A DNA stretch of 64,000 nucleotides from Streptomyces atratus (GTDB lineage: Bacteria > Actinomycetota > Actinomycetes > Streptomycetales > Streptomycetaceae): the NCBI RefSeq assembly GCF_014648655.1, contig NZ_BMRN01000002.1, forward strand, positions 186,001-250,000. Direction: 5' to 3'. Positions 9,492-45,513 of the stretch are shown here, piece by piece (positions within the stretch are counted from its first letter, which is position 1; each line of letters begins with the position of its first letter). The translations under genes and the position numbers were made by a program. The notes beneath the pieces are model-generated. The model was not told the origin of the DNA. It was given only the letters and a program-made list of their open reading frames with translations, and ran no database searches.

Positions 9492-9908
9492 CGATTTGCG
9501 TGACCGGCGCAGCCGTGCGCGGTGCCGCCCGCCGGGAGGGCAGCAAGAAGCGCCCCGCCATCGATCCCCCCACGGGCCGACAGCGAGGCGCTTCCCATAT
9601 CCCGGAGCGGATTCCCCCCACGGGATCCGGCCGGGCGTCTGCGGGAGCCGAAGCTCCTGGGCGCTCCTCACCTACTGCGAGCTGCGCTCTTCACTTGTAC
9701 TTCCAGTGCGGTCCGCCGGGGTACGTACGCACGGGAGGGCCGCTCAAAGCTCCCCGGTGCACGTGCCCCGGCCAACGCTTGCCCGAAGCATCCCCCAAGA
9801 CGCTTCGATGGACGTCCCCCAAGACATCCTTGGCATCGCACTCTTAGACTCGCGAACCCACCGGATGGTTACCCTGAAACCGGTGTGATCTAAATCTCTT
9901 TGTGGAAG
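9492..9908. other. Convergent intergenic spacer
   Basis: About 420 bases between the citA terminators and the end of copA. Plus-strand open frames here are Arg/Pro/Ser-rich and overlap each other; none looks like a protein. A CCCCCAAGAC element occurs twice (about 9790-9825). I see no RNA gene. Confidence 0.5.
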
Positions 9909-25170: not shown

Positions 25171-25232
25171 ACCCCGTGCCGCACACGGCCGGGCCAACCT
25201 CCGGATCAGCCGGACCTGTTGATGGAGAGACC

Positions 25233-30196: not shown

Positions 30197-30620
30197 TCGC
30201 CCATCGTAAGCAGCTCGACTTCGCCGCTCCGGGCCAGGCCGTGAGCTGTAATAAACTTTGGCCGGAATGATTCGCCCGTGGCCGCAGGGGCTGTTTATCC
30301 CCCGGCCTGCCGCGTTGCTGACTTCCTTGTAAATAAACGGAGATCGGCGACAAGAATCCAGGCTTTCCGATCCCGGGCTTCCCGATACCGACTTCCTGAT
30401 CCCCGGCCTCCCGATCCCGGGCTTCGTGATCCCGGGCTTACGTCGCCACGCGTCTGTCCAGCATCCGGATGGGTCAGTCGACCGTCAGGGCCGTATCAGT
30501 GCCCCCTGCCAGAATCGCCGACGTGCCGAGTCGCGCAACTTCCGGCCACCTCCGTGTATCCGCAGCTTTTGTCTCCGCAGTGTCGAGTGCCCAGCACCTC
30601 GGAAGGAAGACGTCGAAATC
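30197..30620. other. Intergenic region upstream of the aldehyde dehydrogenase operon
   Basis: 424 bases between two divergent transcription units. The left part is relatively AT-rich (CTGTAATAAACTTTGG at about 30246) and is a plausible promoter zone. The middle contains a five-unit tandem repeat (30369-30442). The open frame through it is Arg/Pro-rich and probably non-coding. The real start of the dehydrogenase is placed at GTG 30621 after GGAAGGAAG. Confidence 0.5.
30369..30442. repeat. About 15-bp tandem repeat, five units
   Basis: Units begin GAT at 30369, 30384, 30398, 30413 and 30428. Units 1, 4 and 5 share GATCCCGGGCTT; units 2 and 3 are diverged, and one is 14 bases long. It sits about 180 bases upstream of the dehydrogenase start and could be a clustered binding site or simply a slippage array. 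Confidence 0.7.
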
Positions 30621-32342
30621 GTGGAATCTCCCATCGGGACCTTCGGACAAGTCGCCGCGAGTGGTTCGCGACCGTCCCGACCCGTGTTCCTCAGCTACGA
30701 CTCGTATATCGCCGGACATGAGGTGCCAGCAGGAAGACATGTCTACACGGTGAAGACTTCATCCATTCTTGATGACGTCTTCAAGAGCCTGACACTCAAG
30801 CGAAAACTGGAACGTGGCAAAGCCGATCCTGCGGACGCGGCGGACTTTGTCGTGGGGCGCTGCGCGCTGGCCGACGACGAAACGGTCGAGGAGGCATCCC
30901 GCAAAGCAGCCGAGGCCGCTCCGGTATGGGCACGGTTTCCGCTGGAACAGCGCCTGCGGCTGGGCCAGGGAATCCGCGAACGGCTGCTCCGCCACCACCT
31001 GGAGTTCGTCGATCTGCTCATCGCCGAGGGCAACCCGCGGGCGCTGGCCGAATGGCAGGTGGCCGGACTGCTGGAGATCTTCAGCGAGGAGACCCTCGGC
31101 TGGTGCGCCCGGCAGATGGAGCAGAGCATCGAGCACGGCAACCGGCGGATGACCGTACGGCGCGTGGCGGACGGTGTGGTCGCCGTCAACCCGCCGCAGA
31201 ACGCGCCCGCCAGCAGCGCGCTGTTCGGGATCACCCCGCTGATCGCCGGCAACGCCGTGGTCGTGCGGGCCCCGCGCAGCGCACCGCTCGGCGTCATGTA
31301 CGCGATGCGTGAGCTGGTGGCCCCGGCGCTCGACGACATCGGCGCTCCCCCCGGCACGCTCAACGTCTTCTGCTCCCGCCCCGGGCCCGCCATCAAGAGC
31401 TGGCTGGAGAGCCCGCACATCAACGACATCTTCTACACCGGAGGCGTGACCACCGGGCTGGAGCTGGAGCGCGACTGCGTCGCGCACGGCAAGAAGCCCG
31501 TCCTCGAACTCGCCGGCAACGACGCCGTGCTGGTCTGGCACGACGCCGATCTGGAGGCCGCCTGCGAGGCCCTCGTGGAGTGCTTCTTCGGCTCAGGTCA
31601 GATCTGCATGGTGCCCAACCAGGTGATCGTGCACCCCGCCGTCGCCGAACAGCTGCTGGAACGGCTGCGGCTGACCGCGTCACTGATCCGCCCGGGACTG
31701 CCCGAGGACCCCGGCGCGCTGCTCTCCCCCGTACTGCGCAGCGAGCGCTTCTACGCCTATGTCCAGGACGCCCTCGACAAGGGCGCCACCCTGGTGCACG
31801 GCGCCCGGCGGATGGAGACCGACGGCACGCCCTCCGACACCGGCCTCTTCCTCGAACCGACCGTCCTGCGGGTGGACGGCCTCGACCACTGCCGCGACAT
31901 CGAGGCGGTCGCCGAGGAGACGTTCTTCCCGCTGCTGCCGGTCATCGTCCCCGAGGCGGCCCCCGACGACGAACTGCTGGACCGGATGCTCGCCTACGTC
32001 AACAGCAACCCCTACGGGCTCCGCAACTCGCTGTGGACCCGGGACGAGGCCGTCGCCGACCGCTTCGTGGACGAGGTGTCCAACGGCGGCCTGCTCAAGG
32101 TCAACGACTCGCACATCGGCTTCCTGCCCTATCTGCCGACGCACGGCGGCACCGGACGCACCGGCGGCGCCTTCGGTGAGGCCAACTACCCGATGCTGCG
32201 CACCACTCATCTGCAGGGCGTCTCGCGTGCCACCGGGGTACGGCCGCGCGAGGCGGTGTTCGGAGCGTACGCCGAGCTCGCCGGGATGCGCCCGGGGTCA
32301 CTGCCGACCGCCACGCCGGATCACAACTCTGAGGAGCAGTAA
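30621..32342 (+). CDS. Aldehyde dehydrogenase-fold enzyme, candidate acyl thioester reductase
   Basis: 573 residues from GTG 30621. A non-standard N-terminal region of about 90 residues precedes the NAD-binding segment (VAVNPPQNAPASSALFGITP), a general-base-like Glu in VLELAGNDAVLVWHDADLE and the catalytic Cys329 (GSGQICMVPNQV). The C-terminal part (NPYGLRNSLWTRDEAVADRF, GGTGRTGGAFGE) is normal for the fold. In this cluster it could reduce an acyl-ACP or acyl-CoA to the aldehyde consumed by the aminotransferase three genes on. Ordinary aldehyde oxidation is equally possible from sequence. Its stop overlaps the next start (TAATG). Confidence 0.85.
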   Translation: MESPIGTFGQVAASGSRPSRPVFLSYDSYIAGHEVPAGRHVYTVKTSSILDDVFKSLTLKRKLERGKADPADAADFVVGRCALADDETVEEASRKAAEAAPVWARFPLEQRLRLGQGIRERLLRHHLEFVDLLIAEGNPRALAEWQVAGLLEIFSEETLGWCARQMEQSIEHGNRRMTVRRVADGVVAVNPPQNAPASSALFGITPLIAGNAVVVRAPRSAPLGVMYAMRELVAPALDDIGAPPGTLNVFCSRPGPAIKSWLESPHINDIFYTGGVTTGLELERDCVAHGKKPVLELAGNDAVLVWHDADLEAACEALVECFFGSGQICMVPNQVIVHPAVAEQLLERLRLTASLIRPGLPEDPGALLSPVLRSERFYAYVQDALDKGATLVHGARRMETDGTPSDTGLFLEPTVLRVDGLDHCRDIEAVAEETFFPLLPVIVPEAAPDDELLDRMLAYVNSNPYGLRNSLWTRDEAVADRFVDEVSNGGLLKVNDSHIGFLPYLPTHGGTGRTGGAFGEANYPMLRTTHLQGVSRATGVRPREAVFGAYAELAGMRPGSLPTATPDHNSEEQ

Positions 32343-33481
32343 TGCAGTTCATGCAAGCCGACCGCGAAACCTGTGAGGCGCTGCTGCCCGGCCTGCTGGA
32401 CCGGCTGGACGAAGTCCCCTTCGCCGAGCTGGAGTCCGACAACAGCCCCGCCGTCGGGATCTTCCGGGACCACGGCGGATCCAACCTGCTGGTGCCCGCT
32501 GCGTTCGGAGGGGCGGACGCCACCGCGCTGCAGGCGGCCCGGGTGGTGCGCGCCCTGGGCGCCGCGGCCCCCTCGCTCGCCGTGGCGACCGCCATGCACC
32601 ACTTCTCGATCGGCACGCTCTTCGGCGTCGCCGACACCTTCGCGGACGGCACCGACCTCGACGACCTGCTGCTGAAGCGGGTCTCCCAGGAACGCCTGCT
32701 GGTGGCCTCGGCCTTCGCCGAGGGCCGCACCGAACAGGGCATCCTCAGCCCCACCATGGAGGCCCGGCCGGTGGACGGCGGGTATCTGCTGACCGGCTCC
32801 AAGAAGCCGTGCAGCCTGTCGAAATCCATGGACCTGATCACCGCGAGTGTCGGAATGCGCCGGCCGGACGGCTCGGTCGACATGGGCTTCCTGATCCTGC
32901 CCGCCGACACCCCCGGCATCAGCGTGCACCCCTTCTGGAAGACCAGCGCACTGCTGGGCACCGAGAGCAACGAAGTGCGCCTGGATGACGTGTTCGTGAC
33001 CGACCGCCAGATACTCCAGCCGCCGGCCGAGCTGGCCGAGGAGCTCAGCGAGCTCCAGGAGGTCGGACTCATCTGGTTCCAGATGATCGTGTGCGCGGCG
33101 TACACCGGCATGGCCAGCTCCCTGGTCGACCGGGTGCTGCGGCGCGGACGCGGCTCCGCGTCCGACCGCGGCGCGCTCGCCGTCGGCATCGAGACCGCGG
33201 CCGCGCTCACCGAGGGACTGGCCCGGCGCGTCATGGACGGCGACACCGACAACGACGGGCTCGCGGCCGCCCTGGTCACCCGGTTCGGCGTGCAGAAGCT
33301 GGTCGCCGAGACCACCGCACAGGCCGTGGAGATGCTCGGAGGCATGGCCTTCATCTCCTCCTCCGACATCGCGTACCTCGCCTCGGCGACCCACGCGATC
33401 GCCTTCCACCCGCCGTCGCGCACCAGCACCGTCGACGGCCTCCTCGACTACTACGCGGGCCAGCCGCTGGTTGTGGCATGA
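32342..33481 (+). CDS. Acyl-CoA dehydrogenase-fold flavin N-hydroxylase (VlmH-like)
   Basis: 379 residues, coupled to the preceding stop, with GAGGAG upstream. The fold is acyl-CoA dehydrogenase-like: SNLLVPAAFGGADATALQAA, MHHFSIGTLF, AEGRTEQGILSP, and GGYLLTGSKKPCSLSKSMDL. That last motif I associate with the isobutylamine N-hydroxylase (VlmH)/DszC-type flavin monooxygenases rather than with beta-oxidation enzymes. VlmH hydroxylates a primary amine using reduced flavin from VlmR; a flavin reductase lies five genes downstream in the same operon. The likely substrate is an alkylamine. A true acyl-CoA dehydrogenase remains possible. Confidence 0.8.
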   Translation: MQFMQADRETCEALLPGLLDRLDEVPFAELESDNSPAVGIFRDHGGSNLLVPAAFGGADATALQAARVVRALGAAAPSLAVATAMHHFSIGTLFGVADTFADGTDLDDLLLKRVSQERLLVASAFAEGRTEQGILSPTMEARPVDGGYLLTGSKKPCSLSKSMDLITASVGMRRPDGSVDMGFLILPADTPGISVHPFWKTSALLGTESNEVRLDDVFVTDRQILQPPAELAEELSELQEVGLIWFQMIVCAAYTGMASSLVDRVLRRGRGSASDRGALAVGIETAAALTEGLARRVMDGDTDNDGLAAALVTRFGVQKLVAETTAQAVEMLGGMAFISSSDIAYLASATHAIAFHPPSRTSTVDGLLDYYAGQPLVVA

Positions 33482-33498
33482 CAACGGGAGCGACCACG

Positions 33499-34767
33499 AT
33501 GACCACCACGTACACCGGCACCGCAGCGGCGCCCGCCACGGACCCGTACGCCGACCTCGGCACCCGCTACCGCCGCTACCTGAGCAAGGGCCGCGCATCA
33601 CTCGGCGAGATGTTCGGCGGTGACGTGGAGGTCGCCGCCGAGGGCCCCTGGATCCACACCGCCTCCGGAAGCCGCATCCTCAACTGCGGCGGATACGGGG
33701 TCTTCCTGATGGGCGCCCGGCACCCCCGGGTCGTCGCCGAGGTGACCCGGCAGCTCAACACCAATCCGGTCGCCACCCGGCTGCTCCTCGAACCCGCCGT
33801 CGTCGACGCGGCCGAGGCACTGATCGACGTCGTCCCCGCCGGGCTGCAGAAGGTGCACTTCGCGGGCTCCGGAGCGGAGGCCGTGGAAGGTGCCATCAAG
33901 CTGGCGCGCGCCCAGGGCCGCAGACGGCTGATCTCCATGGATCTCGGCTACCACGGCAAGACCATGGGCGCCCTCAGCCTCACCGCGAAGGATGTCTTCC
34001 AGGAGCCGTTCCGGCCGCTGCTGCCGCAGGTCTCGCACGTCCCGTACGGCGACGCGGCCGCCCTTGAGGCCGAGCTGGCGCGCTACCCCGGAGAGGGCTG
34101 CGTCATCGTCGAGCCGGTGCAGGGCGAGGCCGGTGTGATCGTGCCGCCCGAGGGCTATCTGCGGGACGTCGCACGGCTGTGCCGTGAGTACGGGGCGCTC
34201 TTCGTGCTCGACGAGATCCAGACCGGACTCGGCCGCCTCGGCACCTGGTGGGGCGCCGACCGGGAGGGCGTGGTGCCGGACATCCTCCTGGTGGGCAAGG
34301 GGCTGGCCGGCGGCGTGGTGCCGGTCTCGGCCCTGGTGGCGACGCCCGAGGCGTTCCGGCCATTCGACAAGGACCCGTTCATCCACACCTCGACCTTCTC
34401 CGGCAACCCGCTGGCGATGGCCGCGGCCCGCGGTGCGCTCGCCGCCATCAAGGAGGACTCCCTGGTGGAACGGTCCGACGAGCTGGGTCGGCTGCTGCTG
34501 ACCGAGCTGGACCGGATCGCCCGCAAGGTACTCGGCCACCGGCTGCTAGAGGTACGCGGAGCGGGCCTGCTCATCGGCCTGGAGTTCACCGTGCCGGGAC
34601 TGGCGGGGGACCTGCTCCTGGAGCTGATCGGCGCCGGTGTCCTCGCCAACCACTCGCTGAACTCCTCCACCGTCATGCGGCTGACACCACCGGCGGTGCT
34701 CGGCCCGGACGACGTGCAGTTCCTTCTCGACGCCTTCGAGAAGGCCGCCCTCGCCGTCCTCGCCTGA
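33499..34767 (+). CDS. Class III PLP-dependent aminotransferase
   Basis: 422 residues from ATG 33499, eight bases after GGGAG; an ATG at 33478 overlapping the previous stop has no ribosome site. Fold-type I, class III motifs: VHFAGSGAEAVEGAIKLARA, DLGYHGKTMGAL, VIVEPVQGEAGVIVPPEGYL, LFVLDEIQTGLGRLGTWWG, and the PLP Lys267 in LVGKGLAGGVVP. The IHTSTFSGNPLA block resembles putrescine/omega-amine aminotransferases. It would convert a long-chain aldehyde to the primary amine that the neighbouring N-hydroxylase needs. Confidence 0.92.
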   Translation: MTTTYTGTAAAPATDPYADLGTRYRRYLSKGRASLGEMFGGDVEVAAEGPWIHTASGSRILNCGGYGVFLMGARHPRVVAEVTRQLNTNPVATRLLLEPAVVDAAEALIDVVPAGLQKVHFAGSGAEAVEGAIKLARAQGRRRLISMDLGYHGKTMGALSLTAKDVFQEPFRPLLPQVSHVPYGDAAALEAELARYPGEGCVIVEPVQGEAGVIVPPEGYLRDVARLCREYGALFVLDEIQTGLGRLGTWWGADREGVVPDILLVGKGLAGGVVPVSALVATPEAFRPFDKDPFIHTSTFSGNPLAMAAARGALAAIKEDSLVERSDELGRLLLTELDRIARKVLGHRLLEVRGAGLLIGLEFTVPGLAGDLLLELIGAGVLANHSLNSSTVMRLTPPAVLGPDDVQFLLDAFEKAALAVLA

Positions 34768-34892
34768 CCCCGGGGCCGGTCCTCCGGCCGCCCGCGCCCG
34801 ACCTCCGGGCCGGCCCTCGACCACCCCCGCCGTTCTCGCCCGACCCTCCGGACCGTCAGACCGACTCCCCCGACAACTGGAGAAGTATCACC

Positions 34893-35423
34893 GTGAGAAG
34901 CATTCACCTCCTGGTGGCCCTGGACGCCGAGAACCCCTCGGCGGCCTTCGGGACCATCGCGGACTTCACCCGCTTCGCGGACATCGCGGAGGACATCCAC
35001 GTCGTCGAGACCCACCCGCCCGCCACCCCGGACACGCCGCGCGACAGCGACTGGGAGGTGAACTTCCGGCGCGGCATCATGCGCTGGAACGAGGCGGAGA
35101 CCCTCGATCCGGAACGGCTGAGGATCGAATTCGACCAGACCGACGGCGACTTCGAGGAATTCAGGGGCAGCTGGCAGCTCGCCCCGGCCGGCTCCGGCTC
35201 CGGCACCGAGGTCCGCTTCGAGGTCACCTACGACTTCGGCATCGAAAGCCTGGTGGGAATCATGGACCCCATCGCCGAACGCGTGATCAAACGGGCCATC
35301 TGCTCCGTACTCGAAGGGCTCTTCGGCTCCATCACGGTGCTGGAGGGCGGCGAGGCGCTCACCGATCTGCCCGGACCCTCCCCGGAAGCGGCCCCCTCGC
35401 TCTCCGCCCGAGGAGGTGCCTGA
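34893..35423 (+). CDS. SRPBCC (polyketide cyclase/coenzyme Q-binding-like) protein
   Basis: 176 residues from GTG 34893, with GGAGAAG upstream. SRPBCC/START-like pattern: VRSIHLLVALDAENPSAAFG, TIADFTRFADIAEDIHVVET, FRGSWQLAPAGSGSGTEVRF, VTYDFGIESLVGIMDPIAER, and a closing C-terminal helix. The fold gives a deep hydrophobic pocket, suited to a lipid-like intermediate. No catalytic residues can be assigned. It is coupled (TGATG) to the membrane protein gene that follows, suggesting the two act together. Confidence 0.8.
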   Translation: MRSIHLLVALDAENPSAAFGTIADFTRFADIAEDIHVVETHPPATPDTPRDSDWEVNFRRGIMRWNEAETLDPERLRIEFDQTDGDFEEFRGSWQLAPAGSGSGTEVRFEVTYDFGIESLVGIMDPIAERVIKRAICSVLEGLFGSITVLEGGEALTDLPGPSPEAAPSLSARGGA

Positions 35424-35926
35424 TGGATGCGCTCAACCGCTTCGACACCAAGGCCACCTACCGGTTGATCCGGCTCGAATACCTCTTCGCCCTCGGCGTC
35501 AGCTTCTACTTCTTCTTCCGGCACCTGGGCGACATCCGCTGGTGGCCCTTCGCCCTGCTCTTCGTCTACATCGACCTGATCGGCTACATCCCCGGCGCCA
35601 TCGCCTACCACCGCAGCAGGACCAAGCGGATTCCGAAGGCGTACTACGTGCTGTACAACACCATGCACAGCATGGCGACCCAGGGCGCCGTCGCCCTGCT
35701 GTGGATCCTGCTGATCGGCAACGAGTGGGCGCTGCTCGCCCTCCCCATCCATCTGTGCGGGGACCGGGCCCTGTTCGGCAACTTCCTGAAACCGTTCGGC
35801 GTCAGCTTCGAGCCCGTCGTCCATCCGAAGTTCGCCGCACTGGAAGCGGCCGTGGAGCAGGGATCCGGCCGGGCCCCGGCCCCCGTTCCCGCCCCGGCCC
35901 CCGCCCGTCAGTCCGCCACCTCATGA
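35423..35926 (+). CDS. Small integral membrane protein, VlmO-like candidate
   Basis: 167 residues with GAGGAGG upstream. Four likely membrane segments: LEYLFALGVSFYFFF, WWPFALLFVYIDLIGYIPGA, QGAVALLWILLIG, and WALLALPIHL. Polar conserved-looking patches include YHRSRTKRIPKAYYVLYNTMH and LCGDRALFGNFLKPFG. The tail is Ala/Pro-rich. It lies between an SRPBCC gene and a flavin reductase, overlapping both, in an operon with other valanimycin-type genes. In valanimycin an integral membrane protein (VlmO) is needed after seryl transfer. The assignment here is from context and topology, not proven homology. Confidence 0.7.
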   Translation: MDALNRFDTKATYRLIRLEYLFALGVSFYFFFRHLGDIRWWPFALLFVYIDLIGYIPGAIAYHRSRTKRIPKAYYVLYNTMHSMATQGAVALLWILLIGNEWALLALPIHLCGDRALFGNFLKPFGVSFEPVVHPKFAALEAAVEQGSGRAPAPVPAPAPARQSATS

Positions 35927-36459
35927 CCTCGCCGATCGGCACGGCGCGGCGGCCGGTCGTCGAAACCACGGTGTGGAGCGCCGCCCGGAGATTCCCCACC
36001 GGGGTGTCGGTGGTGACCGTGGGCAGCGGGGACGCGGTGCACGGCAGCACCGTCAGCGCGTTCTCCTTCGTCTCCCACGAACCGCCGCTGATCTCCGTCT
36101 GTCTGCAGAACGACAGTTCACTGCTCCCACGCATCACGCAGCACCGCGTCTTCACCGTCAACGTGCTCGCCGCCCACCAGGCCGCGCTGGCCCGGCACTT
36201 CGCCAGCCGCACCAGAAGTCCGGGGCGCGCCCAGTTCCAAGCGGTGCAGTGGACACCGGGCGAGGACGGTGTGCCCCGGCTGCGGTCCGCCCTCAGCTGG
36301 CTGCACTGCCGGGTCCACGAATGCGTCCCGGCCGGGGACCACGTGGTCGTGCTGGCCACTGTGACGGCCTGTGCGGCCGAGAGCGACCAGGCCCCACTGC
36401 TGTACTTCGCCGGGCATCTTCACCCCGGTCACATCCGGATCGAGGAGGAAACCACATGA
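35923..36459 (+). CDS. Flavin reductase (VlmR-like)
   Basis: 178 residues; the ATGA overlap fixes the start. Flavin-reductase-like split-barrel: ARRFPTGVSVVTVGSGDAVH, GSTVSAFSFVSHEPPLISVC, FTVNVLAAHQAALARHFASR, and LHCRVHECVPAGDHVVVLAT, ending in YFAGHLHPG. It would supply free reduced FMN or FAD to the two-component N-hydroxylase encoded by 32342-33481, as VlmR does for VlmH. It also overlaps the following diiron gene (ATGA). Confidence 0.92.
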   Translation: MTSPIGTARRPVVETTVWSAARRFPTGVSVVTVGSGDAVHGSTVSAFSFVSHEPPLISVCLQNDSSLLPRITQHRVFTVNVLAAHQAALARHFASRTRSPGRAQFQAVQWTPGEDGVPRLRSALSWLHCRVHECVPAGDHVVVLATVTACAAESDQAPLLYFAGHLHPGHIRIEEETT

Positions 36460-37412
36460 CCACGCCGATTCCCGCCGAGGCGGACTGGGACCAGGCCCCC
36501 GGACTGCTCGAAGGCGCCATGGACCTGGAGCTCACCGCGGCGGACTGCAACCTCCGCTACTGGCTGCAGGCCGTACCGCAGGGCACCCTGCGCGGCCGAC
36601 CGGACGGACACGACCCCGCCCTCACCGTGGCCCCGTACATGCTGGAGGGGCCGTTCCACGAGGCCATCACCCAGGAGTACGCCTTCCGGGCACTGGCCGA
36701 GGAGAAGGCCACCCGGGTGCTGTCGTACCTGGTCCCGATCGCGCCGGACAACGACACCATGGAGTTCTACGCCACCCAGGTGCTGGACGAGTGCCGGCAC
36801 GCCATGGTCTTCCGCAACCACCTGCTGGCGCTCGGCATCGCCCCCGAGCGGCTGGTCGAGGCGGTCGACACCTTCGCCTCCCCGTACAAGGAGAGCGTGC
36901 TGGGCCCGCTGGAGCAGCGCAGCCTGGAAATCATGCGCGACGACCGGGACTTCATCGGCGGCGTGGTGATGATGACGATCATCCTGGAGGGCGCCCTCGC
37001 CCCCGCGGCCGAACTGAGCGAGCGCAAGTGGCGGCCGCTCGACCCGGCGGCCGCGGAGATCGACAAGGGCGCGGGCATCGACGAGATCCGGCATCTGACG
37101 GTCGGGGCGGACATCGCTCGCCGCCATCTGATCGACCACCCGCAGGACAAGGACCGGGTCGTGGAGCTGATCCGCCGTGGCATGGACATGTGGGAGGAGC
37201 TCCCCACCCACGACATGGTGCACTGGCGCGAGGAGCGGTTCCAGGAGGGGCTGCGCCGCCACGGTGACGTGGTGGGCGACTACGAGATCTGGCCGGGCCG
37301 CCGGCTGATCGACACCACCCCGCAGGAGCGTCAGGACACCGCCGACAAGTGGTCCGACGACATGAAGGCCAAGCGCCTGAAGTACATGGGGCTGGAAGAG
37401 GCCCTCATATGA
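36456..37412 (+). CDS. Ferritin-like diiron oxygenase, VlmB-like candidate
   Basis: 318 residues. Two ExxH iron-ligand motifs are explicit: LDECRHAMVF (Glu112/His115) and IDEIRHLTVG (Glu210/His213). Additional Glu-bearing helices (ITQEYAFRALAEEKATRVLS, MTIILEGALAPAAELSE) supply the remaining carboxylates. This is the four-helix diiron oxygenase arrangement, as in AurF/CmlI-type N-oxygenases. In an N-N bond pathway the natural role is oxidation of a hydrazine or hydroxylamine intermediate to the azoxy group. It is translationally coupled on both sides, between flavin reductase and KAS III. Confidence 0.85.
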   Translation: MTTPIPAEADWDQAPGLLEGAMDLELTAADCNLRYWLQAVPQGTLRGRPDGHDPALTVAPYMLEGPFHEAITQEYAFRALAEEKATRVLSYLVPIAPDNDTMEFYATQVLDECRHAMVFRNHLLALGIAPERLVEAVDTFASPYKESVLGPLEQRSLEIMRDDRDFIGGVVMMTIILEGALAPAAELSERKWRPLDPAAAEIDKGAGIDEIRHLTVGADIARRHLIDHPQDKDRVVELIRRGMDMWEELPTHDMVHWREERFQEGLRRHGDVVGDYEIWPGRRLIDTTPQERQDTADKWSDDMKAKRLKYMGLEEALI

Positions 37413-38440
37413 CGGGCGCTCCCACGGCCGGGCGGACGCCCGGACCGGCCGCGGTGCTGTGCGGGCTCGGCGGCTGGCTGCCGCCGAAGGTGGTGACCAA
37501 CGAGGAACTCGTCGCCCGGCTCGACACCTCGGACGAGTGGATCCGCACCCGTACCGGCATCCGGCAGCGCCATGTGATCGAGCCCGGCATGTCCACCGGT
37601 TCGCTCGCCGTCGAGGCCGGGGCCAGGGCCCTGAAGTCGGCGCAGCAGGACTCCGTCGGCGCGGTGGTCCTCGCCACCACCACCCCGGACCGCCCCTGCC
37701 CGGCGACCGCCCCCGAGGTGGCCGCGCGGCTCGGCCTGGCCGGCGTACCGGCCTTCGACATCGGGGCCGTCTGCGCCGGATTCGTCTACGCACTGGCGAC
37801 CGGCGCCGGTCTGATCGCCACCGGGACGGCCGACGACGTCCTGGTGATCGGCGCGGACGCCTACTCGACGCTGCTCGATCCCGAGGACCGTACGACAGGA
37901 CCGATCTTCGGGGACGGCGCCGGAGCTGTCGTGCTGCGCCGCGGCGAGCCGGACGAGCCCGGGGCGCTCGGCGGATTCGACCTGGGCACCGACGGACACC
38001 TCTCCGATCTGATCGAGGTGCCGGCCGGGGGCTCGCGCCAGCGGGGCAGCGGCGTACCGGCCGGACCCCGCGACCACTACTTCGCCATGCAGGGCAAGCA
38101 GGTGTTCCGGCACGCCGTGCTGCGGATGACCGGCTCCGTGCACAAGGCCGTCGGCCGGGCCGGCTGGACCGTCGCCGGCATCGACCGGCTCGCCGCCCAC
38201 CAGGCCAACTCCCGCATCCTGGACGCCCTGACCGATCAGCTCGAGCTGCCCAGGGAACGCGCCCTGTCCAACATCGACCGGGTCGGCAACACCGCTGCGG
38301 CATCGGTCCCGCTGCTGCTGGCCGACTCCGTGAACGAAGGCTCCCTGCGGGCCGGCCACTCGGTGGTGCTCACCTCCTTCGGAGGCGGCCTCGCCTGGGG
38401 CTCCACCACGCTGCGCTGGCCGCAGCTGGACGCCGTCTGA
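37409..38440 (+). CDS. 3-oxoacyl-ACP synthase III (KAS III, FabH-like)
   Basis: 343 residues. FabH hallmarks: SDEWIRTRTGIRQRHV, the nucleophile Cys122 in FDIGAVCAGFVYAL, FGDGAGAVVL, the His of LAAHQANSRIL and the Asn of IDRVGNTAAASVPL. It starts a fatty acyl chain by condensing an acyl-CoA with malonyl-ACP. With the following ACP and KAS II it forms a dedicated chain-building set, presumably drawing reductases from primary fatty-acid synthesis because none is encoded here. Confidence 0.92.
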   Translation: MTGAPTAGRTPGPAAVLCGLGGWLPPKVVTNEELVARLDTSDEWIRTRTGIRQRHVIEPGMSTGSLAVEAGARALKSAQQDSVGAVVLATTTPDRPCPATAPEVAARLGLAGVPAFDIGAVCAGFVYALATGAGLIATGTADDVLVIGADAYSTLLDPEDRTTGPIFGDGAGAVVLRRGEPDEPGALGGFDLGTDGHLSDLIEVPAGGSRQRGSGVPAGPRDHYFAMQGKQVFRHAVLRMTGSVHKAVGRAGWTVAGIDRLAAHQANSRILDALTDQLELPRERALSNIDRVGNTAAASVPLLLADSVNEGSLRAGHSVVLTSFGGGLAWGSTTLRWPQLDAV

Positions 38441-38501
38441 CCCGCACCACCCCACCCGCTCATCCCGTCCCGCCCTGTGCGTACACCGTAAGGAGACAGA
38501 C

Positions 38502-38741
38502 ATGCCCAGCGTTCTCGACCGGATCACCGAGGTCCTCGTCAGCCGGTTCGGAGTCGAGCCGGAGGAGGTCACCGAGGACACCACGATGCGCGATCTCGAC
38601 CTGGACTCCCTGGCCCTGGTCGAATTCGCCCTGGTCGCCGGTGGTGAGTTCAACATCCAGATCGACGACGAGGAAGTCGGCGCGGAATCGTCGGTCAAGG
38701 ACCTGATCTCCCTGATCGACAGCAAGAGCGCGGTGCTGTGA
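38502..38741 (+). CDS. Acyl carrier protein
   Basis: 79 residues, with AAGGAG upstream. The motif DLDLDSLALVEFAL carries the phosphopantetheine Ser36, and the helix pattern (VLDRITEVLVSRFGV, VKDLISLIDS) is a normal type II ACP. It sits between KAS III and KAS II and overlaps the KAS II start as GTGA, so it is the carrier for the alkyl chain rather than for the PKS. Confidence 0.93.
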   Translation: MPSVLDRITEVLVSRFGVEPEEVTEDTTMRDLDLDSLALVEFALVAGGEFNIQIDDEEVGAESSVKDLISLIDSKSAVL

Positions 38742-39982
38742 GCCCCGGCCGCGACGACGCCGGGGCCCGTGACATCGCGGTCACCGGTCTCGGCCTGCTG
38801 ACCCCGGCGGGCAACGGGGTGGCGGAGAACTGGGCGCGGGTCCTGGACGCCGAACCGACCGCGGCCACCGACCCCGGTCTGGCGGGGCTGCTGGTCGACT
38901 TCAGCTGCCGCGCCGCGGACTTCGACCCGGTGGCCCACTTCGGCAGGCGACGGGCCTGGCGGCTCGACCGCTACGTACAACTGGCCCTGATCGCTGCGGC
39001 GGAGGCCGTCCACGACAGCGGGCTCGACCCTGCCGACTGGGACGGAGCCCGGGTCGGCGTGGTCCTGGGCAACGCCCTCGGCGGCACCGCCACGTTCGAG
39101 CAACAGGTCCGCACCCTCGACCGGCAGGGGGCGGCGGCCGTCTCACCGATGCTGGTGCCGATGTCCGCGGTCAACATGGTGTCCGGTTACGCGGCCATGG
39201 AGTTCGGCGCCCTCGGCCCCAACCTCGTCACCGCCACGGCGTGCGCCTCGGCCTCCACCGCCATCGGCACGGCACGGGACCTGCTGCGGTCCGGTACGTG
39301 CGACGTGGTGATCACGGGAGGCACCGAGGCGAGCCTGACCCCGGCGGTGCTGTCCGGCTTCGCCCGGATGGGAGCACTCTCGCGGCGGTGCGACGATCCG
39401 GCCGCGGCCTCCCGCCCGTTCGACACCGACCGGGACGGGTTCGTGGCGGCGGAGGGCGCGGGGATGCTGGTCCTGGAGCGGTCGGCCGACGCCCGCGCCC
39501 GCGGCGCCCGGGTAAGGGCCCGGCTGAGCGGATACGGAGCATCGGCCGACGCCCACCACGCCACCGCTCCCGACCCGGAGGGGCGGGGCGCCGAACGCGC
39601 GATCCGCACGGCGCTGCGCGACGCGGGCGTGGCCCCCGACGAGGTCGACCATGTGAACGCGCACGGCACCTCGACCCCGCTCAACGACCTCACCGAGGCC
39701 CGGGTGCTGAAACGGGTGCTCGGCACGCGTCCCGTGGTGACGTCGTCCAAGGGCGTGACCGGGCACTCGCTCGGTGCCGCGGGCGCCATCGAAGCGGTGC
39801 TCACCGTCCTCGCGCTGGAGCAGGGGACCGTGCCGCCCACCGCGAACCTCGACAGCGTCGACCCCGCCATCGAGGTCGACATCGTGGCGAAGGCGCCCCG
39901 GGCCCTGCCGATCGGAGTCGCCCTGAGCAACTCCTTCGGATTCGGGGGGCAGAACGCCGTACTCGTGTTCACCGCGGCCTGA
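38738..39982 (+). CDS. 3-oxoacyl-ACP synthase II (KAS II, FabF-like)
   Basis: 414 residues from the overlapping GTG. Motifs: ITGLGLLTPAGNGV-type N-terminus (here VTGLGLLTPAGNG), catalytic Cys169 in TACASASTAIGTA, VNAHGTSTPLNDLTEA with the first His, and SSKGVTGHSLGAAGAIEAV with the second. SNSFGFGGQNAVLVF closes the fold. It elongates acyl-ACP with malonyl-ACP. Both catalytic His and the Cys are present, so it is an active condensing enzyme and not a chain-length factor. Confidence 0.93.
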   Translation: MSPGRDDAGARDIAVTGLGLLTPAGNGVAENWARVLDAEPTAATDPGLAGLLVDFSCRAADFDPVAHFGRRRAWRLDRYVQLALIAAAEAVHDSGLDPADWDGARVGVVLGNALGGTATFEQQVRTLDRQGAAAVSPMLVPMSAVNMVSGYAAMEFGALGPNLVTATACASASTAIGTARDLLRSGTCDVVITGGTEASLTPAVLSGFARMGALSRRCDDPAAASRPFDTDRDGFVAAEGAGMLVLERSADARARGARVRARLSGYGASADAHHATAPDPEGRGAERAIRTALRDAGVAPDEVDHVNAHGTSTPLNDLTEARVLKRVLGTRPVVTSSKGVTGHSLGAAGAIEAVLTVLALEQGTVPPTANLDSVDPAIEVDIVAKAPRALPIGVALSNSFGFGGQNAVLVFTAA

Positions 39983-40033
39983 CGGCGGCGCCATCCGGCC
40001 CGGCAATTCGGCCCGACATGAAGGAGAACGCTC

Positions 40034-41083
40034 ATGCCCGCCCGACAGGACTCCCTGACCATCTCGCCGACAGGATCCTTCGAGGAGCTGTCCGAACTGG
40101 TCAAGCAGGCCGGGCTGATGGATCCCCGGAAGGACTACTTCACCTTCAAGATAATCTCCAACCTCGTTCTGTTCGGGGCCTGCTGGGCGGCCCTGTTCTG
40201 GTTCGGGGACACCTGGTGGCAACTGGTGACCGCGGTCGCGCTGGGACTGGCGTTCGTCCAGACCGGCTTCATCGCGCACGACACGGGCCACAAGCAGATC
40301 AGCAAGGCCAAGGTGCCCTCCGAGGTACTCGGCGCCATCCACATGAACCTGCTGATGGGCACCGCGTACGGCTGGTGGATCAACCACCACAACCGGCACC
40401 ACAGCAACCCCAACAACCTCGACCGCGACCCGGACACGATGCGTCGTCAGGTCATCTTCGACGTGGACGAGATGCCGGCGAAGGCGACGAGCGGATTTCG
40501 GCGGTTCGTCATCCGCTTCCAGTCGGTGATGTTCTTCGTGCTGCTGGGGCAGGAGGCCTGGCGGCTGCACGCGTCCGGCTTCAAGGCGGCACGGGCGGGT
40601 GGGCTGCGCCGCCCCGTCCTGGAGCTCGGGCTGATCGGGGTGCACGCCGTGGTCTGTCTGGCAGCCGTGTTCACCGTGCTGTCACCGCTGACCGGTGTGG
40701 TGTTCGTGCTCGTCAACCAGGCGGTGTTCGGCCTGTATCTGGGTGCCGTCTTCGCCCCGAACCACAAGGGCATGGTGGTCTACCGCAGCGATGTCCAGCT
40801 CGACTGGCTCCACCGTCAGGTACTGACGTCACGCAACATCCGGTCCAGCCGGCTGACCGATTTCCTGTACGGGGGGCTGAACTACCAGATCGAGCATCAT
40901 CTCTTCCCCGCCATGCCCCGGGTCAATCTGCGGTACGTACGGCCGATGGTCATCGACTACTGCGCGGAGCACTCCATTCCGTACCGGGAGGTGTCCGCCT
41001 GGGCCTCGTACCGTGAGGTGGCACGCTTCCTCGGGAAGGTCAGTGACGAGGCCCGCAACGGCGCGGAACCGCAGGCTGCGTGA
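40034..41083 (+). CDS. Membrane fatty acid desaturase
   Basis: 349 residues, AAGGAG upstream. The three histidine boxes of front-end/acyl-lipid desaturases are present: HDTGHKQ, NHHNRHHSNPN and YQIEHHLFP, with paired membrane segments before and after. These ligate a diiron centre that inserts a cis double bond in an acyl or alkyl chain. In this pathway it could provide the alkenyl unit next to an azoxy group. It is 51 bases after KAS II and is the last gene of the 30.6-41.1 kb operon. Confidence 0.92.
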   Translation: MPARQDSLTISPTGSFEELSELVKQAGLMDPRKDYFTFKIISNLVLFGACWAALFWFGDTWWQLVTAVALGLAFVQTGFIAHDTGHKQISKAKVPSEVLGAIHMNLLMGTAYGWWINHHNRHHSNPNNLDRDPDTMRRQVIFDVDEMPAKATSGFRRFVIRFQSVMFFVLLGQEAWRLHASGFKAARAGGLRRPVLELGLIGVHAVVCLAAVFTVLSPLTGVVFVLVNQAVFGLYLGAVFAPNHKGMVVYRSDVQLDWLHRQVLTSRNIRSSRLTDFLYGGLNYQIEHHLFPAMPRVNLRYVRPMVIDYCAEHSIPYREVSAWASYREVARFLGKVSDEARNGAEPQAA

Positions 41084-41400
41084 GTGTCCCGGCCGGGTCC
41101 GCCGGTGCCCGATCCGGCGGCATCGCACGGCATCGGATGCCGCTGGGCCCGCGTGCCGGATGGTACGTGGGCCCTCAGCCGCACCGGCCGGCGCCCAGGC
41201 GTTCTTGGGTATTTTTTTGCATTCCCCGCTGAGAATGGGTTTTATCACGCTCCCCGGTGAGGCGTCAATTACTGGATGGGTAATGGACTTTGCCAATTGC
41301 CGTACTGCACAGTTGGCTGAACGGGGGGCGTGCTCGACAGACCTTCAACGAGTTACGGCCCTTCCCGACGGTCAACGGATGATTGGACACGGGGGGATTC
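41084..41400. other. Regulatory gap between the main operon and the SARP gene
   Basis: 317 bases. At 41197-41219 a short CCCAG/TTGGG stem is followed by TATTTTTTT, a possible intrinsic terminator for the desaturase operon. The right half is AT-richer than its surroundings and carries operator copy 3 at 41268. No gene is seen. Confidence 0.5.
41268..41284. promoter_or_regulatory. Operator copy 3: ATTAC-N7-GTAAT upstream of the SARP gene
   Basis: ATTACTGGATGGGTAAT keeps both outer arms and spacing of the sites at 27737 and 46481, but its inner arms are not complementary. It lies 117 bases before the SARP start, so the MmyB-type regulators may control the activator. Confidence 0.55.
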
Positions 41401-42219
41401 GTGACATTCAGGGTTCTTGGCTCAGTGGGAATAATGAACGGAACCAGTTTGACCGCTTTACGGGGTGCGCGTCAGTGCACGCTGCTCGCGCTGCTGCTCC
41501 TGAAGGCGGGGGAGCCGGTGACCAAGGAGCAGTTCTTCGAGGAGCTGTGGGAGGAAGGTATACCGAGTCAGCCCGGGAACGCCTTGCAGGCCCAAGTGGC
41601 CCGGCTGCGAAAAGTGCTCCGCGCCGAGCTCGGTGACGAGTTCGTCTGCCGGCGGCTGATCACCCGCCCGTCGAGCTATGTGCTGGACGTCGACCCGCTC
41701 GAAGTGGACGTGCACCTCTTCGGGTCCCTGACGAAACAGGCGCGCGCTTCGATGCGTAACGATCCGGCGGGCGCGAGGGAGCTGTTCGACCGGGCCCTGT
41801 CGCTCTGGCACGGTGCGCCGCTGGAGGGGGTCACCGGCGGCCCGATCTGCCAGAGTGCCGCCGCGCAGTTCGAGGAGAACCGGCTCTCGGCCGTGGAGGC
41901 ACGGATACAGCTCGATATCGCGATCGACGGATACGCCCAGGCTGTCAGCGAGTTGAAGATGCTCGCCTACCTCGCCCCCTGGCGGGAGCGGCTGTTCGAG
42001 CTGCTGATGGTGTGCCTCTACCGCCTCGGTCGTCAGGCCGAGGCCATACAGACCTACAACCAGCTGCGCAGCCGTCTGGTCGAGGAGTTCGGGATGGAAC
42101 CCTCGCCGAGCGTCAAGAGCTGCATGATGGCGATCCTCAACCAGGACCCGGCGCTCGGCGGCGCCGAACGGCTCGTGGTGGCACGTACTCCGCTGGCCGG
42201 TTCCGCGGTCGCGTCCTGA
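41401..42219 (+). CDS. SARP-family pathway activator with a TTA codon
   Basis: 272 residues from GTG 41401, after a G-rich ribosome site. An OmpR-like winged helix (VTFRVLGSVGIMNGTS, LLLLKAGEPVTKEQFFEELW, NALQAQVARLRKVL, YVLDVDPLEVDVHLF) is followed by a bacterial transcriptional activation domain (YLAPWRERLFELLMVCLYRL, QAEAIQTYNQLRSRLVEEFG). These activators switch on antibiotic clusters through direct repeats near -35. Codon 20 (41458-41460) is TTA, so translation should depend on the bldA tRNA-Leu. Valanimycin also uses a SARP (VlmI). Confidence 0.92.
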   Translation: MTFRVLGSVGIMNGTSLTALRGARQCTLLALLLLKAGEPVTKEQFFEELWEEGIPSQPGNALQAQVARLRKVLRAELGDEFVCRRLITRPSSYVLDVDPLEVDVHLFGSLTKQARASMRNDPAGARELFDRALSLWHGAPLEGVTGGPICQSAAAQFEENRLSAVEARIQLDIAIDGYAQAVSELKMLAYLAPWRERLFELLMVCLYRLGRQAEAIQTYNQLRSRLVEEFGMEPSPSVKSCMMAILNQDPALGGAERLVVARTPLAGSAVAS

Positions 42220-43761: not shown

Positions 43762-44763
43762 TCAAATGGCGTTGGCCGCCTTGAAGATGTGAAGAAGCCC
43801 GCTCAACCGGGCCTCGCCCTGGAAGGCCACGTACTCCGGCAGCACCAGCGGTGCCCACTTCTGCTTGTACGCCAGCTGTGTCTGAGCCGGGTACACGGCG
43901 GCGCCGTTGGCCAGCATCCACCGCATGAACCAGGCGAAACCCCTGCTGGATCCGGGTACTTCGTACTCCTCGGCAAGCCCGGTGAACGGGGTGAAGCCGA
44001 AGTGCAGCCAGTCGGCCCCCTCGGCGACGAAGGTGTCGATGGCCGTCCTGTTGATGGCCTCCATGATGCCCGGCACCTTGTCCGGAAGACGGCGGCTGAG
44101 GTCGTGCAGCCAGCCGCTGCGACTGCCGTGGGCGGGGGAGTAGGAGATGTACCCGACGGGCTTGCCGTCGATCCGGCCCACGAAGAGCCGGCGCAACGCC
44201 TGTGCCTCGCCGCCCAGTTCACCCACCAGGAACTCCAGCGGCTTGGCGTGCTCGCCCTTGCTGCCCAGCCAGGCGCGGTCGACCTCCGCCACCGCCTCCG
44301 CGCACTCCGCCAGCGGGCTCTCCGTCACGGTGAGCCCGGCCCGGAACGAGCGGGCGATCTTGTTCCGCAGCTGCATGAAGCGCGTGCCGCGCAGGCTGAA
44401 GTCGGCCAGGTCGATGGCGTACGAGGCGCCCACCTGGTTCACGGTGAAGCCCTGTTCGGCGTACAGGCCGGTCTCCGCCCGCTGGAGCTGGACCGACACG
44501 ACCAGGCGCTCCTGGGCCGCGGCGAAATCCAGAAAGCCCTTCAGTAGCCGGCCTGCGGCCTCCGGGGGAGAAATGGGGCCGCCGAACTGCACCAGATACG
44601 GTCCGGAGGTCCGGTACACGATCACTCCGGGCAGCCCCGGCAGCGAGAAGCGGGCATTTCCGCTGCTGAGGGCCAGGAATCCGCTGGGATTGTCGCTGAA
44701 CTCCGCCACCGCGCGGAGCGTGTTGTCGAAGTCGGTGCTGTCTGCCGTGACACTGGAAGTCAT
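43762..44763 (-). CDS. DUF2156/GNAT-fold aminoacyl-tRNA-dependent transferase (VlmA-like)
   Basis: 333 residues. Two GNAT-like halves are visible. The second has RNKIARSFRAGLTVTE, DRAWLGSKGEHAKPLEFLVG, the block GYISYSPAHGSRSGWLHDLS, and IDTFVAEGADWLHFGFTPF, the pattern of DUF2156 (the catalytic domain of MprF-type lysyl-phosphatidylglycerol synthases). VlmA of valanimycin, which transfers serine from seryl-tRNA to an alkylhydroxylamine, is to my knowledge in this superfamily. Here it lies in an N-hydroxylase cluster and 117 bases downstream of a tRNA-Ser-like gene, so seryl transfer is the natural role. The ribosome site is weak; a terminator separates it from the tRNA. Confidence 0.82.
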   Translation of the reverse strand: MTSSVTADSTDFDNTLRAVAEFSDNPSGFLALSSGNARFSLPGLPGVIVYRTSGPYLVQFGGPISPPEAAGRLLKGFLDFAAAQERLVVSVQLQRAETGLYAEQGFTVNQVGASYAIDLADFSLRGTRFMQLRNKIARSFRAGLTVTESPLAECAEAVAEVDRAWLGSKGEHAKPLEFLVGELGGEAQALRRLFVGRIDGKPVGYISYSPAHGSRSGWLHDLSRRLPDKVPGIMEAINRTAIDTFVAEGADWLHFGFTPFTGLAEEYEVPGSSRGFAWFMRWMLANGAAVYPAQTQLAYKQKWAPLVLPEYVAFQGEARLSGLLHIFKAANAI

Positions 44764-44880: not shown

Positions 44881-44971
44881 CGGAGAGGGCAGGATTCGAA
44901 CCTGCGTGGACCGTTGCGGGCCCGACCTTGCTTGCGCGCGGTCCCCGATAAACCACTCCGGGCACCTCTCC
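44881..44971 (-). tRNA. tRNA-Ser-like gene with abnormal anticodon arm
   Basis: A 91-base class II tRNA fold is readable: acceptor GGAGAGG/CCTCTCC (perfect), D stem CCCG/CGGG with loop GAGTGGTTTAT, a 5-bp long variable arm (GGGCC/GGTCC, one G-U), T arm GCAGG-TTCGAAT-CCTGC (perfect), and G as discriminator. All these fit seryl-tRNA identity. The anticodon arm is wrong: only GACC/GGTC pair, enclosing a 12-base loop GCGCGCAAGCAA that contains no T, so the invariant U33 is missing. CCA is not encoded. It should be chargeable by SerRS, which ignores the anticodon, but unable to decode. A decaying ordinary tRNA is the alternative. Confidence 0.75.
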
Positions 44972-45050
44972 GTGTTCCCGGTCCGGTTTCCCGTCCCGTT
45001 CACAAGTAAGAGTCTGCCAGAGGGGCCTGACATGGCTCTGACGCCCCGCT

Positions 45051-45092
45051 GATGGTGTGCCGGGCCGGGCGGACCCGGCCCGGCGCACCATC
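45051..45092 (-). terminator. 19-bp hairpin at the end of the membrane protein gene
   Basis: GATGGTGTGCCGGGCCGGG pairs with CCCGGCCCGGCGCACCATC with a single T-G wobble and loop CGGA. The right arm overlaps the stop of the gene at 45091-45513. It isolates that transcript from the tRNA-like gene downstream. Confidence 0.8.
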
Positions 45093-45513
45093 ACATGCGC
45101 CGCAGGCCCACGTACTGGAGCGCACCCATGGCCGCCACCACCAGGCCCTGGAACACGATCCATCCGTCGCCGATGTTCGTCGCGGTCAGCGCGTCCACGG
45201 CGACCGTCGCGACGCTGGCCACGGCCCAGGTCACGTTCAGGGTGATGATGGCGAGGACAGCGCCGCGGTTGATGTTCTCCTGGCGGGAGACGACCAGCAC
45301 CCACAGGGCGTACACGGTGAGGAACACACCCACCGGGTACTGCACCGAGAGGTTCACGCCGAGGAACGAGTCGAGGACCGTGGCGAGCACGAGATATCCG
45401 ATGCCGTTCGCACCGGTGAGGATCACGTCCGCCACGAGGGCGAAGCGGAGAAGGCCGTCGGAACGGGCGGCGCCCGTCACCGGGACCGTACCCGCGTTCT
45501 GGGACGACGTCAT
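45091..45513 (-). CDS. Four-helix integral membrane protein
   Basis: 140 residues from ATG 45513, overlapping the stop of the XRE gene (ATGA). Four hydrophobic segments: LRFALVADVILTGANGIGYL, YPVGVFLTVYALWVLVVS, VLAIITLNVTWAVASVATVA and WIVFQGLVVAAMGALQYVGL. I see no catalytic residues or transport motif. Its coupling to an MmyB-type regulator suggests a sensor or stress-membrane role, or it may be the first target of that regulator. It is a second candidate for a membrane component of the azoxy pathway. Confidence 0.75.
   Translation of the reverse strand: MTSSQNAGTVPVTGAARSDGLLRFALVADVILTGANGIGYLVLATVLDSFLGVNLSVQYPVGVFLTVYALWVLVVSRQENINRGAVLAIITLNVTWAVASVATVAVDALTATNIGDGWIVFQGLVVAAMGALQYVGLRRM

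What the first reader, a model, noticed from the sequence alone, without database searches (positions are those of the whole stretch)
44881..44971. A tRNA-Ser-like gene that appears unable to decode, embedded in an azoxy-type cluster
Seen: acceptor stem, T arm, long variable arm, D-loop GG and discriminator G are all intact for seryl identity, yet the anticodon arm has only four pairs and a 12-base loop without any T, so U33 and a usable anticodon are missing. It is 117 bases upstream of, and on the same strand as, a DUF2156 transferase of the VlmA kind, with its own terminator. Known: seryl-tRNA synthetase reads the variable arm and acceptor rather than the anticodon, and VlmA takes serine from seryl-tRNA. 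Inference: this may be a dedicated pathway tRNA that delivers serine to secondary metabolism and cannot enter translation usefully. I know of no described equivalent in an azoxy cluster.
Basis: partly seen in the sequence, partly recalled or inferred. Interest (0 to 1): 0.93.

Follow-up and report, generated by a model that had tools for sequence, protein, structure and literature searches.

The report
Anticodon-less tRNA serving azoxy biosynthesis
A Streptomyces gene cluster of the kind that makes nitrogen-nitrogen-bonded (azoxy) natural products carries a gene for a serine-type transfer RNA that has lost its codon-reading part; in the genomes searched its relatives go with the same kind of cluster, so it is likely a private serine carrier that feeds the pathway instead of protein synthesis.

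Summary
At 44971-44881 (-) lies a class II tRNA-like gene with intact acceptor, D, variable and T arms and G73. It has no decoding anticodon loop, and ARAGORN does not call it. It is unlikely to be a pseudogene: 91 copies occur in 35 of 295 congeneric genomes; 34 of the 35 carry a VlmA homologue at E<=1e-30, and the 35th a divergent one 2.3 kb from its RNA. RNA-bearing genomes fall on one side of the VlmA tree (34 of 36 rows; 0 of 25 elsewhere). Sixteen of 29 base pairs show compensatory changes, including all seven of the anticodon-arm hairpin. Acceptor and T arms are ~99% conserved, while the anticodon is not kept. Sixty-seven of 78 lead copies have a SARP-type triple repeat upstream; the window holds two perfect ones, before the RNA and before the azoxy operon. 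A divergent SerRS accompanies the RNA in 17 genomes, mostly 5-6 kb from vlmA. Some genomes carry many dispersed copies; three have the promoter beside vlmA without the RNA. Best reading: a dedicated, non-decoding seryl carrier feeding VlmA. Expression, charging and transfer are untested.

The parts
44881..44971 (-). tRNA-Ser-like RNA without a decoding anticodon loop
   Evidence: Sequence, fold, model R1 match 91.5 bits (the window copy is one of the 20 that built the model), 90 relatives
45027..45053 (-). SARP-type triple direct repeat ((A/G)TCAG, 11-bp period) upstream of the RNA
   Evidence: one of two perfect matches in the window (a third has one mismatch; 0.05 expected for up to one mismatch); the architecture fits SARP targets as described in PMC10936776
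44827..44866 (-). stable hairpin after the RNA, possible terminator (weak U tract)
   Evidence: -35.1 kcal/mol, z -5.3; consensus terminator scan negative
43762..44763 (-). vlmA homologue, DUF2156/PF09924 aminoacyl-tRNA-dependent transferase family
   Evidence: Pfam PF09924 E 1.2e-56; PDB kin include alanyl- and lysyl-tRNA-dependent phosphatidylglycerol synthases
41383..42219 (+). small SARP regulator (Trans_reg_C + BTAD)
   Evidence: Pfam
30473..30499 (+). second SARP-type triple repeat, upstream of the azoxy biosynthetic operon
30852..41083 (+). azoxy operon: aldehyde dehydrogenase, VlmH-like acyl-CoA-dehydrogenase fold, class III aminotransferase, SRPBCC, VlmO-like (weak DUF4260), VlmR-like flavin reductase, VlmB-like diiron protein, KAS III, ACP, KS, desaturase
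   Evidence: Pfam (the VlmH-, VlmO- and VlmB-like matches are below Pfam's cut-off); the ACP and KS were not scanned and are read from an annotated relative with the same order

Best explanation
The element is a gene for a tRNA-Ser-like RNA that lacks a usable anticodon, and it likely works as a private carrier that delivers serine to the VlmA-type transferase encoded beside it. Steps: (1) the cluster's SARP is predicted to switch on the RNA and the azoxy operon together through the same triple repeat (repeats shown; binding inferred). (2) The RNA is predicted to be serylated, by housekeeping SerRS in this genome and probably by the divergent SerRS found in about half of the RNA-bearing relatives (identity elements and co-occurrence shown; charging untested). 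(3) Without a decoding loop it would be useless to the ribosome, so its serine would be kept for VlmA, which would form the O-seryl-hydroxylamine ester that VlmO and VlmB turn into the azoxy group (known chemistry of valanimycin; transfer from this RNA untested). (4) Copies in tandem or scattered over the genome are predicted to raise the dose in trans.
For: Co-occurrence: RNA in 35 of 295 genomes, 34 of them with VlmA at E<=1e-30 (VlmA in 61 of 295; Fisher p 1e-26, relatedness ignored); the 35th has a divergent VlmA near the RNA. Five RNA-bearing genomes of Kitasatospora, Streptacidiphilus and Embleya, 5 of 5, carry VlmA. RNA tracks one side of the VlmA tree: 34 of 36 rows, 0 of 25 elsewhere; adding 7 rows leaves 2 changes. 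Covariation: 16 of 29 pairs with double changes, 0 of 500 shuffles as high, all 7 anticodon-arm pairs among them (alignment fitted to the structure). No anticodon: perfect 5-bp stem + 7-nt loop + U33 in 9 of 9 distinct ordinary class II tRNAs but 4 of 82 distinct copies; 13 of 82 at >=4/5 pairs against 14% in shuffles. Ser identity: G73 82 of 82, G2-C71 82, G4-C69 82, C11-G24 81 of 82, long variable arm; determinants from PMC9976931. Regulation: 67 of 78 lead copies with >=10/12 of the triple repeat, shuffles 0.18%. Promoter without RNA beside vlmA in 3 genomes that hold copies elsewhere. Weak-scoring second SerRS in 17 of 34 RNA+ and 0 of 27 RNA- vlmA genomes. RNA beside vlmA in clusters with VlmJ/VlmK-type genes.
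Against: No transcript, charging or transfer data. The determinant G30-C40 is not kept. Two vlmA loci on the RNA side of the tree (G112, G125) have no RNA in the 40 kb searched with filters off and none in the genome above ordinary-tRNA scores, so it is not strictly required. The window's genome has one SerRS only, the ordinary one. The SerRS class was split off by score after the fact; by identity (58% or more) the same SerRS family is also in one RNA-less vlmA genome, G192, on another contig than vlmA, and as a fragment in G118. The RNA-SerRS link lies on one side of the VlmA tree and is not independent. 4 of 82 copies do have a perfect 7-nt loop with U33. The T stem was not tested for EF-Tu escape.
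Confidence: 0.78

Rival explanations
1. A regulatory decoy or sensor: the uncharged or charged RNA binds SerRS, VlmA or another protein and tunes the pathway or serine supply without donating serine itself.
For: The anticodon region carries a maintained but variable hairpin. Many copies with one promoter type would also suit a sponge. No charging data exist.
Against: The parts needed for charging and donation (acceptor 98.8%, T arm 99.4%, G73 82 of 82) are the most conserved, and the rest drifts. The RNA tracks a group of enzymes from an aminoacyl-tRNA-using family.
Confidence: 0.12
2. An ordinary or suppressor tRNA that still decodes, with an unusual anticodon loop.
For: ARAGORN run on the isolated copies assigns many of them an anticodon, a few of them serine; 4 of 82 distinct copies have a perfect 7-nt loop with U33, and one imperfect register reads ACT.
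Against: In the printed part the assigned anticodons are scattered over Leu, Val, Ala, Met, Cys, Asp, Glu and others. None of the four perfect loops is a serine anticodon (TTT, TCG, GTG, TCA). The genome already has GCT, TGA, CGA and GGA tRNA-Ser.
Confidence: 0.03
3. A decaying pseudo-tRNA, or a tRNA fragment left by a mobile element.
For: Dispersed copies exist; one copy (L175) looks damaged in acceptor and T arm and lacks the repeat. Some clusters lie on linear plasmids.
Against: Covariation, near-invariant acceptor and T arms and promoter repeats on 67 of 78 lead copies, presence in four genera.
Confidence: 0.02
4. A dedicated carrier, but for an amino acid other than serine.
For: Alanyl-tRNA was proposed for azodyrecin (PMC9379638). 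G30-C40 is missing.
Against: G73, long variable arm, G2-C71, A3-U70 in 81 of 82 rather than G3-U70 (the alanine rule is recalled). A SerRS is the synthetase found with it (other synthetases were not searched). The clade with the azodyrecin-type methyltransferase lacks the RNA.
Confidence: 0.05

Closest known systems
Non-proteinogenic tRNA-Gly of Staphylococcus aureus (peptidoglycan; passage in PMC9976931)
   Same: A tRNA gene set aside for a non-ribosomal aminoacyl transferase.
   Different: Those escape EF-Tu through T-arm changes; that they keep a glycine anticodon is recalled. Here the anticodon loop itself is gone, and the gene belongs to a secondary-metabolite cluster with SARP-type repeats.
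Valanimycin VlmA/VlmL (seryl-tRNA transfer; cluster-encoded SerRS)
   Same: VlmA family, seryl donor, a cluster SerRS in about half of the relatives.
   Different: The passages seen speak of seryl-tRNA and mention no tRNA gene in the cluster; the 2008 VlmA paper was not held, and the vlm cluster itself was not examined for the RNA.
tmRNA (recalled)
   Same: An aminoacylated tRNA-like RNA without an anticodon.
   Different: tmRNA serves ribosome rescue and carries an mRNA part; this RNA is a complete class II tRNA body without one.
Pseudo-tRNA of Bacillus cereus (recalled)
   Same: A tRNA-like gene implicated outside decoding.
   Different: As far as recalled, not linked to a biosynthetic cluster, a SARP or a VlmA-type transferase.

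Membership tests
tRNA-Ser (class II) | G73, long variable arm, G2-C71, R4-Y69, C11-G24 | tested here: met
   determinants from PMC9976931
tRNA-Ser (class II) | G30-C40 in the anticodon stem | tested here: not met
   The rebuilt stem makes the numbering ambiguous, but its inner three pairs are mostly A-U, C-G and C-G; the fourth is C-G in 69 of 82 and never G-C
tRNA-Ser (class II) | 7-nt loop with U33 and a serine anticodon | tested here: not met
   None in the window copy; 0 of the 4 perfect arms among 82 copies has a Ser anticodon
Non-proteinogenic (dedicated) tRNA | Association with a non-ribosomal aminoacyl transferase | tested here: met
Non-proteinogenic (dedicated) tRNA | Charged, but not used by EF-Tu or the ribosome | not testable with these tools
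   Needs acid gel, EF-Tu binding, polysome profiling
VlmA family (DUF2156/PF09924) | PF09924 domain within a VlmB/H/O/R-type cluster | tested here: met
   (B, H and O matches weak)
SARP-controlled promoter | Direct repeats 11 bp apart | tested here: met
   rule from PMC10936776
SARP-controlled promoter | Last repeat 8 bp from the -10 element | tested here: inconclusive
   Looked at by eye only; no transcription start is known
SARP-controlled promoter | Binding by the cluster SARP | not testable with these tools
   Needs EMSA or reporter

The most novel reading that the evidence does not exclude
Azoxy clusters run a private, translation-orthogonal aminoacylation system: an anticodon-less seryl carrier RNA, in many lineages paired with its own SerRS, whose gene has multiplied over the chromosome and plasmids (at least 15 copies in one Kitasatospora) as a dispersed regulon of the cluster's SARP, so that a secondary-metabolite pathway owns its own aminoacyl-tRNA economy.
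Probability: 0.5. Interest if true: 0.96.

Novelty: new variant of a known kind. Interest (0 to 1): 0.93.

Why it matters
How enzymes that divert aminoacyl-tRNA from translation choose their tRNA is open; PMC9976931 says the identity elements for the valanimycin, pacidamycin and cyclodipeptide enzymes are still unknown (passage). A family of at least 82 distinct natural sequences in which acceptor and T arms are almost frozen while the decoding part has drifted points to the likely recognition surface and makes the question directly testable. It also offers a natural serine carrier, and in about half of the RNA-bearing genomes a divergent SerRS, that may be orthogonal to translation, and a marker (RNA plus TCAG repeats) for finding azoxy clusters, including ones whose RNA lies elsewhere in the genome.

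Tried and rejected
A decay reading and an ordinary-tRNA reading were tested and rejected. A free-energy test of the anticodon loop was dropped as evidence: it also fails to show the 7-nt loop in 3 of 5 ordinary tRNA-Ser controls; the combinatorial test replaced it. The idea that RNA-negative vlmA clusters use a dedicated SerRS instead was wrong: the SerRS goes with the RNA. On checking, I found that the SerRS class had been split by Pfam score after the fact, so I searched by sequence: the family (58% identity or more) is in the 17 genomes, in G207 and G152, and in RNA-less G192, with a fragment in RNA-less G118; other second SerRS genes (in G040, G102, G136, G156, G185, G208, G240) are 35-44% identical and not of it. 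The first DNA search gave three matches that are not family members (L007 in coding sequence; L008 and L009 read by me as ordinary tRNA-Gln); they were dropped before any count. Hits of 50.9 bits and less were taken as ordinary tRNAs without checking each; the cut was set after seeing the gap (57.6 against 50.9). The first repeat scoring let matches inside a neighbouring copy count; one search separates lead from downstream copies. Literature: searches found no paper; some gave the azoxy papers looked at (PMC9379638: passages and two sections; PMC12945691, PMC11705231, PMC6662830: passages); none mentions a tRNA gene in an azoxy cluster in what I saw, but the library lacks most subscription papers and preprints. 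Not used: structure prediction.

Full report
What is there. On the minus strand at 44971-44881 stands a 91-nt class II tRNA-like gene. It has a 7-bp acceptor stem, a D arm with GG, a long variable arm, a canonical T arm and G73, but where the anticodon arm should be there is GACC/GGTC closing a 12-nt loop with no T. ARAGORN does not call it, it is not among the Rfam matches at gathering score, and tRNA-Sec is the best weak match of its clan. It lies 117 bases upstream of a PF09924 (DUF2156) gene whose solved relatives include alanyl- and lysyl-tRNA-dependent phosphatidylglycerol synthases.

The neighbourhood is an azoxy cluster. Pfam gives an aldehyde dehydrogenase, a VlmH-like protein, an aminotransferase, an SRPBCC protein, a weak DUF4260 match as reported for VlmO/Ady6, a flavin reductase, a weak haem-oxygenase/AurF-like match as for VlmB, KAS III, a desaturase, a SARP and an FkbM methyltransferase. 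The gene order of the operon recurs, annotated, in Streptomyces sp. NBC_00887. The Vlm and Ady roles come from PMC9379638 (passages and sections 7-8) and PMC11705231 (passages).

It is a family. A DNA search of 100 relatives found homologues in five other congeneric genomes, two of them with eight scored copies each (26 matches in 9 genomes, of which 3 matches in 3 genomes are not family members and were dropped). A covariance model from 20 copies, run on 295 genomes of the genus, separated family members (57.6 bits and up) from lower hits taken as ordinary tRNAs (50.9 and down): 91 copies in 35 genomes, the window's included. Copy numbers are lower bounds because that search scored 14 candidates per genome.

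It goes with VlmA. VlmA homologues at E<=1e-30 occur in 61 of the same 295 genomes, at 62 loci. Thirty-four of the 35 RNA genomes are among them (Fisher p 1e-26, ignoring relatedness); the 35th, G207, has a 36.5% identical homologue 2.3 kb from its RNA. In 26 of the 35 an RNA copy lies within 25 kb of vlmA; in some others the contigs are short. On a quick tree of 61 VlmA rows (G192 and G207 left out) the RNA genomes sit on one side of a branch with 99% SH-aLRT: 36 rows, 34 with RNA; the other 25 rows have none. Adding G192, G207 and five rows from other genera gives 68 rows and still two changes of the label; G207 is a long branch. The two exceptions, G112 and one of two loci of G125, were searched again with filters off and show no trace. 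Five genomes of other genera, picked because they hold the RNA, all have VlmA at 55-62% identity; two carry 11 and 15 copies. Seven of ten plasmid records with the RNA also carry vlmA (searches compared by eye).

It does not decode. Nine of nine distinct ordinary class II tRNAs from the window's genome show a perfect 5-bp stem, 7-nt loop and U33; four of 82 distinct copies do, none with a serine anticodon, and 13 of 82 with four or more pairs is what shuffling gives, 14%. Yet the arm is kept as a hairpin: all seven pairs of its two helices show double changes, and over the whole structure 16 of 29 pairs do, 0 of 500 shuffles reaching that. The alignment was fitted to the structure and the rows are related, so the counts lean towards it; slid structures reach 4 to 8 pairs. 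Column identity is 98.8% in the acceptor, 99.4% in the T arm, 86.6% in the D arm, 69.5% in the anticodon arm and 66.7% in the variable region. The bacterial serine determinants listed in PMC9976931 (passages) are met except G30-C40.

It is wired to the cluster. Upstream of the RNA is a triple TCAG repeat with 11-bp period; the window holds two perfect matches, before the RNA and before the azoxy operon, and one with a mismatch (0.05 expected in all). Of 78 lead copies with upstream sequence, 67 score 10 or more of 12 and 50 are perfect; shuffles reach 10 in 0.18%. Eleven lead copies score 6 to 9. Twelve copies follow another in tandem, 10 of them at 124-125 nt; one more copy has no upstream sequence. 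In 20-kb contexts the repeat (14 of 15 letters or better) occurs 38 times around vlmA of RNA genomes and 8 times around the others, 7 of these 8 at the two RNA-less loci on the RNA side of the tree. The spacing rule for SARP targets is from PMC10936776 (passages). SARP homologues occur in 14 of 18, 9 of 15 and 2 of 2 contexts of the RNA side by my grouping, and in 0 of 25 others.

Copies act as if in trans. G033, G185 and G156 have the repeat promoter beside vlmA, but the RNA that should follow is missing, while they hold 8, 4 and 4 copies elsewhere, those of G156 on a 343-kb replicon separate from vlmA. This is what one expects if scattered copies replace the local one; loss and its order are inferred.

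A synthetase keeps company. Among 62 genomes tested, a second SerRS that scores weakly (24-39 bits) occurs in 17, all RNA-bearing, against 0 of the 27 RNA-negative vlmA genomes. In 14 of the 17 it lies on the contig of vlmA, 5.1-6.4 kb away in 12, 9.9 kb in G154 and 14.9 kb in G163; in G233 it shares the contig with the RNA, and in G268 and G252 it sits on another contig, in G268 with azoxy genes. The class was set by score after the fact. By sequence (58% identity or more to one member) the family is in these 17, in RNA-bearing G207 and G152, and in one RNA-less genome, G192, on another contig than vlmA; RNA-less G118 has an 87-residue stretch at 64%. Eleven of 12 read from the contexts are full 425-aa proteins; three compared are 37-43% identical to ordinary SerRS, and one matches solved SerRS over nearly its length. 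The window's genome has only the ordinary SerRS, so there the host enzyme would have to charge the RNA.

Which amino acid. RNA-bearing clusters include ones with genes annotated as diacylglycerol kinase and MmgE/PrpD, which I take as the VlmJ/VlmK types (PF19279/PF03972) that PMC9379638 links to the serine-derived unit. The main RNA-negative clade has a PF04072 methyltransferase of the Ady1 kind in 15 of 16 contexts (family clustered, also in 3 of 9 further RNA-less contexts; Pfam run on one representative), and alanyl-tRNA was proposed for azodyrecin. Against a simple rule, the two RNA-less loci on the RNA side also have a VlmJ-type gene.

Verdict. A dedicated non-decoding seryl carrier fits all of this; transcription, charging and transfer remain to be shown. 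The nearest known kind is the non-proteinogenic tRNA-Gly of S. aureus (PMC9976931, passage). I found no description of a tRNA gene in an azoxy cluster, with the limit that the library is open-licence only.

Noticed in passing
window 9576-9637 (-): Match to Streptomyces sRNA Scr2736 (RF02831), 71.3 bits.
   Followed up: no
window 22039-26801: A stand-alone PKS module and an AMP-ligase a few kb before the azoxy operon; may belong to it or to a neighbouring cluster.
   Followed up: no
window 45091-45513 (-); L112, L116, L117, L119: Small membrane-like protein beside the RNA; homologues in other azoxy clusters have their own TCAG triple repeat upstream.
   Followed up: partly
L175:2001-2098 (G321): A copy with damaged acceptor and T arm and no repeat upstream, probably a decaying member.
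   Followed up: partly
L027 and L038: Dispersed copies in G033 and G003 share several flanking gene families, so at least one dispersed site may be older than the split of these species.
   Followed up: no
NZ_CP108789.1, NZ_CP024986.1, NZ_CP108456.1: Azoxy clusters with the RNA on linear plasmids, including pSA3239 of S. lavendulae with a serS near vlmA.
   Followed up: partly
L396:11723-11814: The RNA falls in a gap where one locus tag (OG844_RS00465) is missing from the protein table, so it may be annotated as some tRNA.
   Followed up: no
G132, G152, G207, G192: SerRS genes about 58-59% identical to the cluster SerRS lie away from vlmA or on other contigs; their role is unknown.
   Followed up: no
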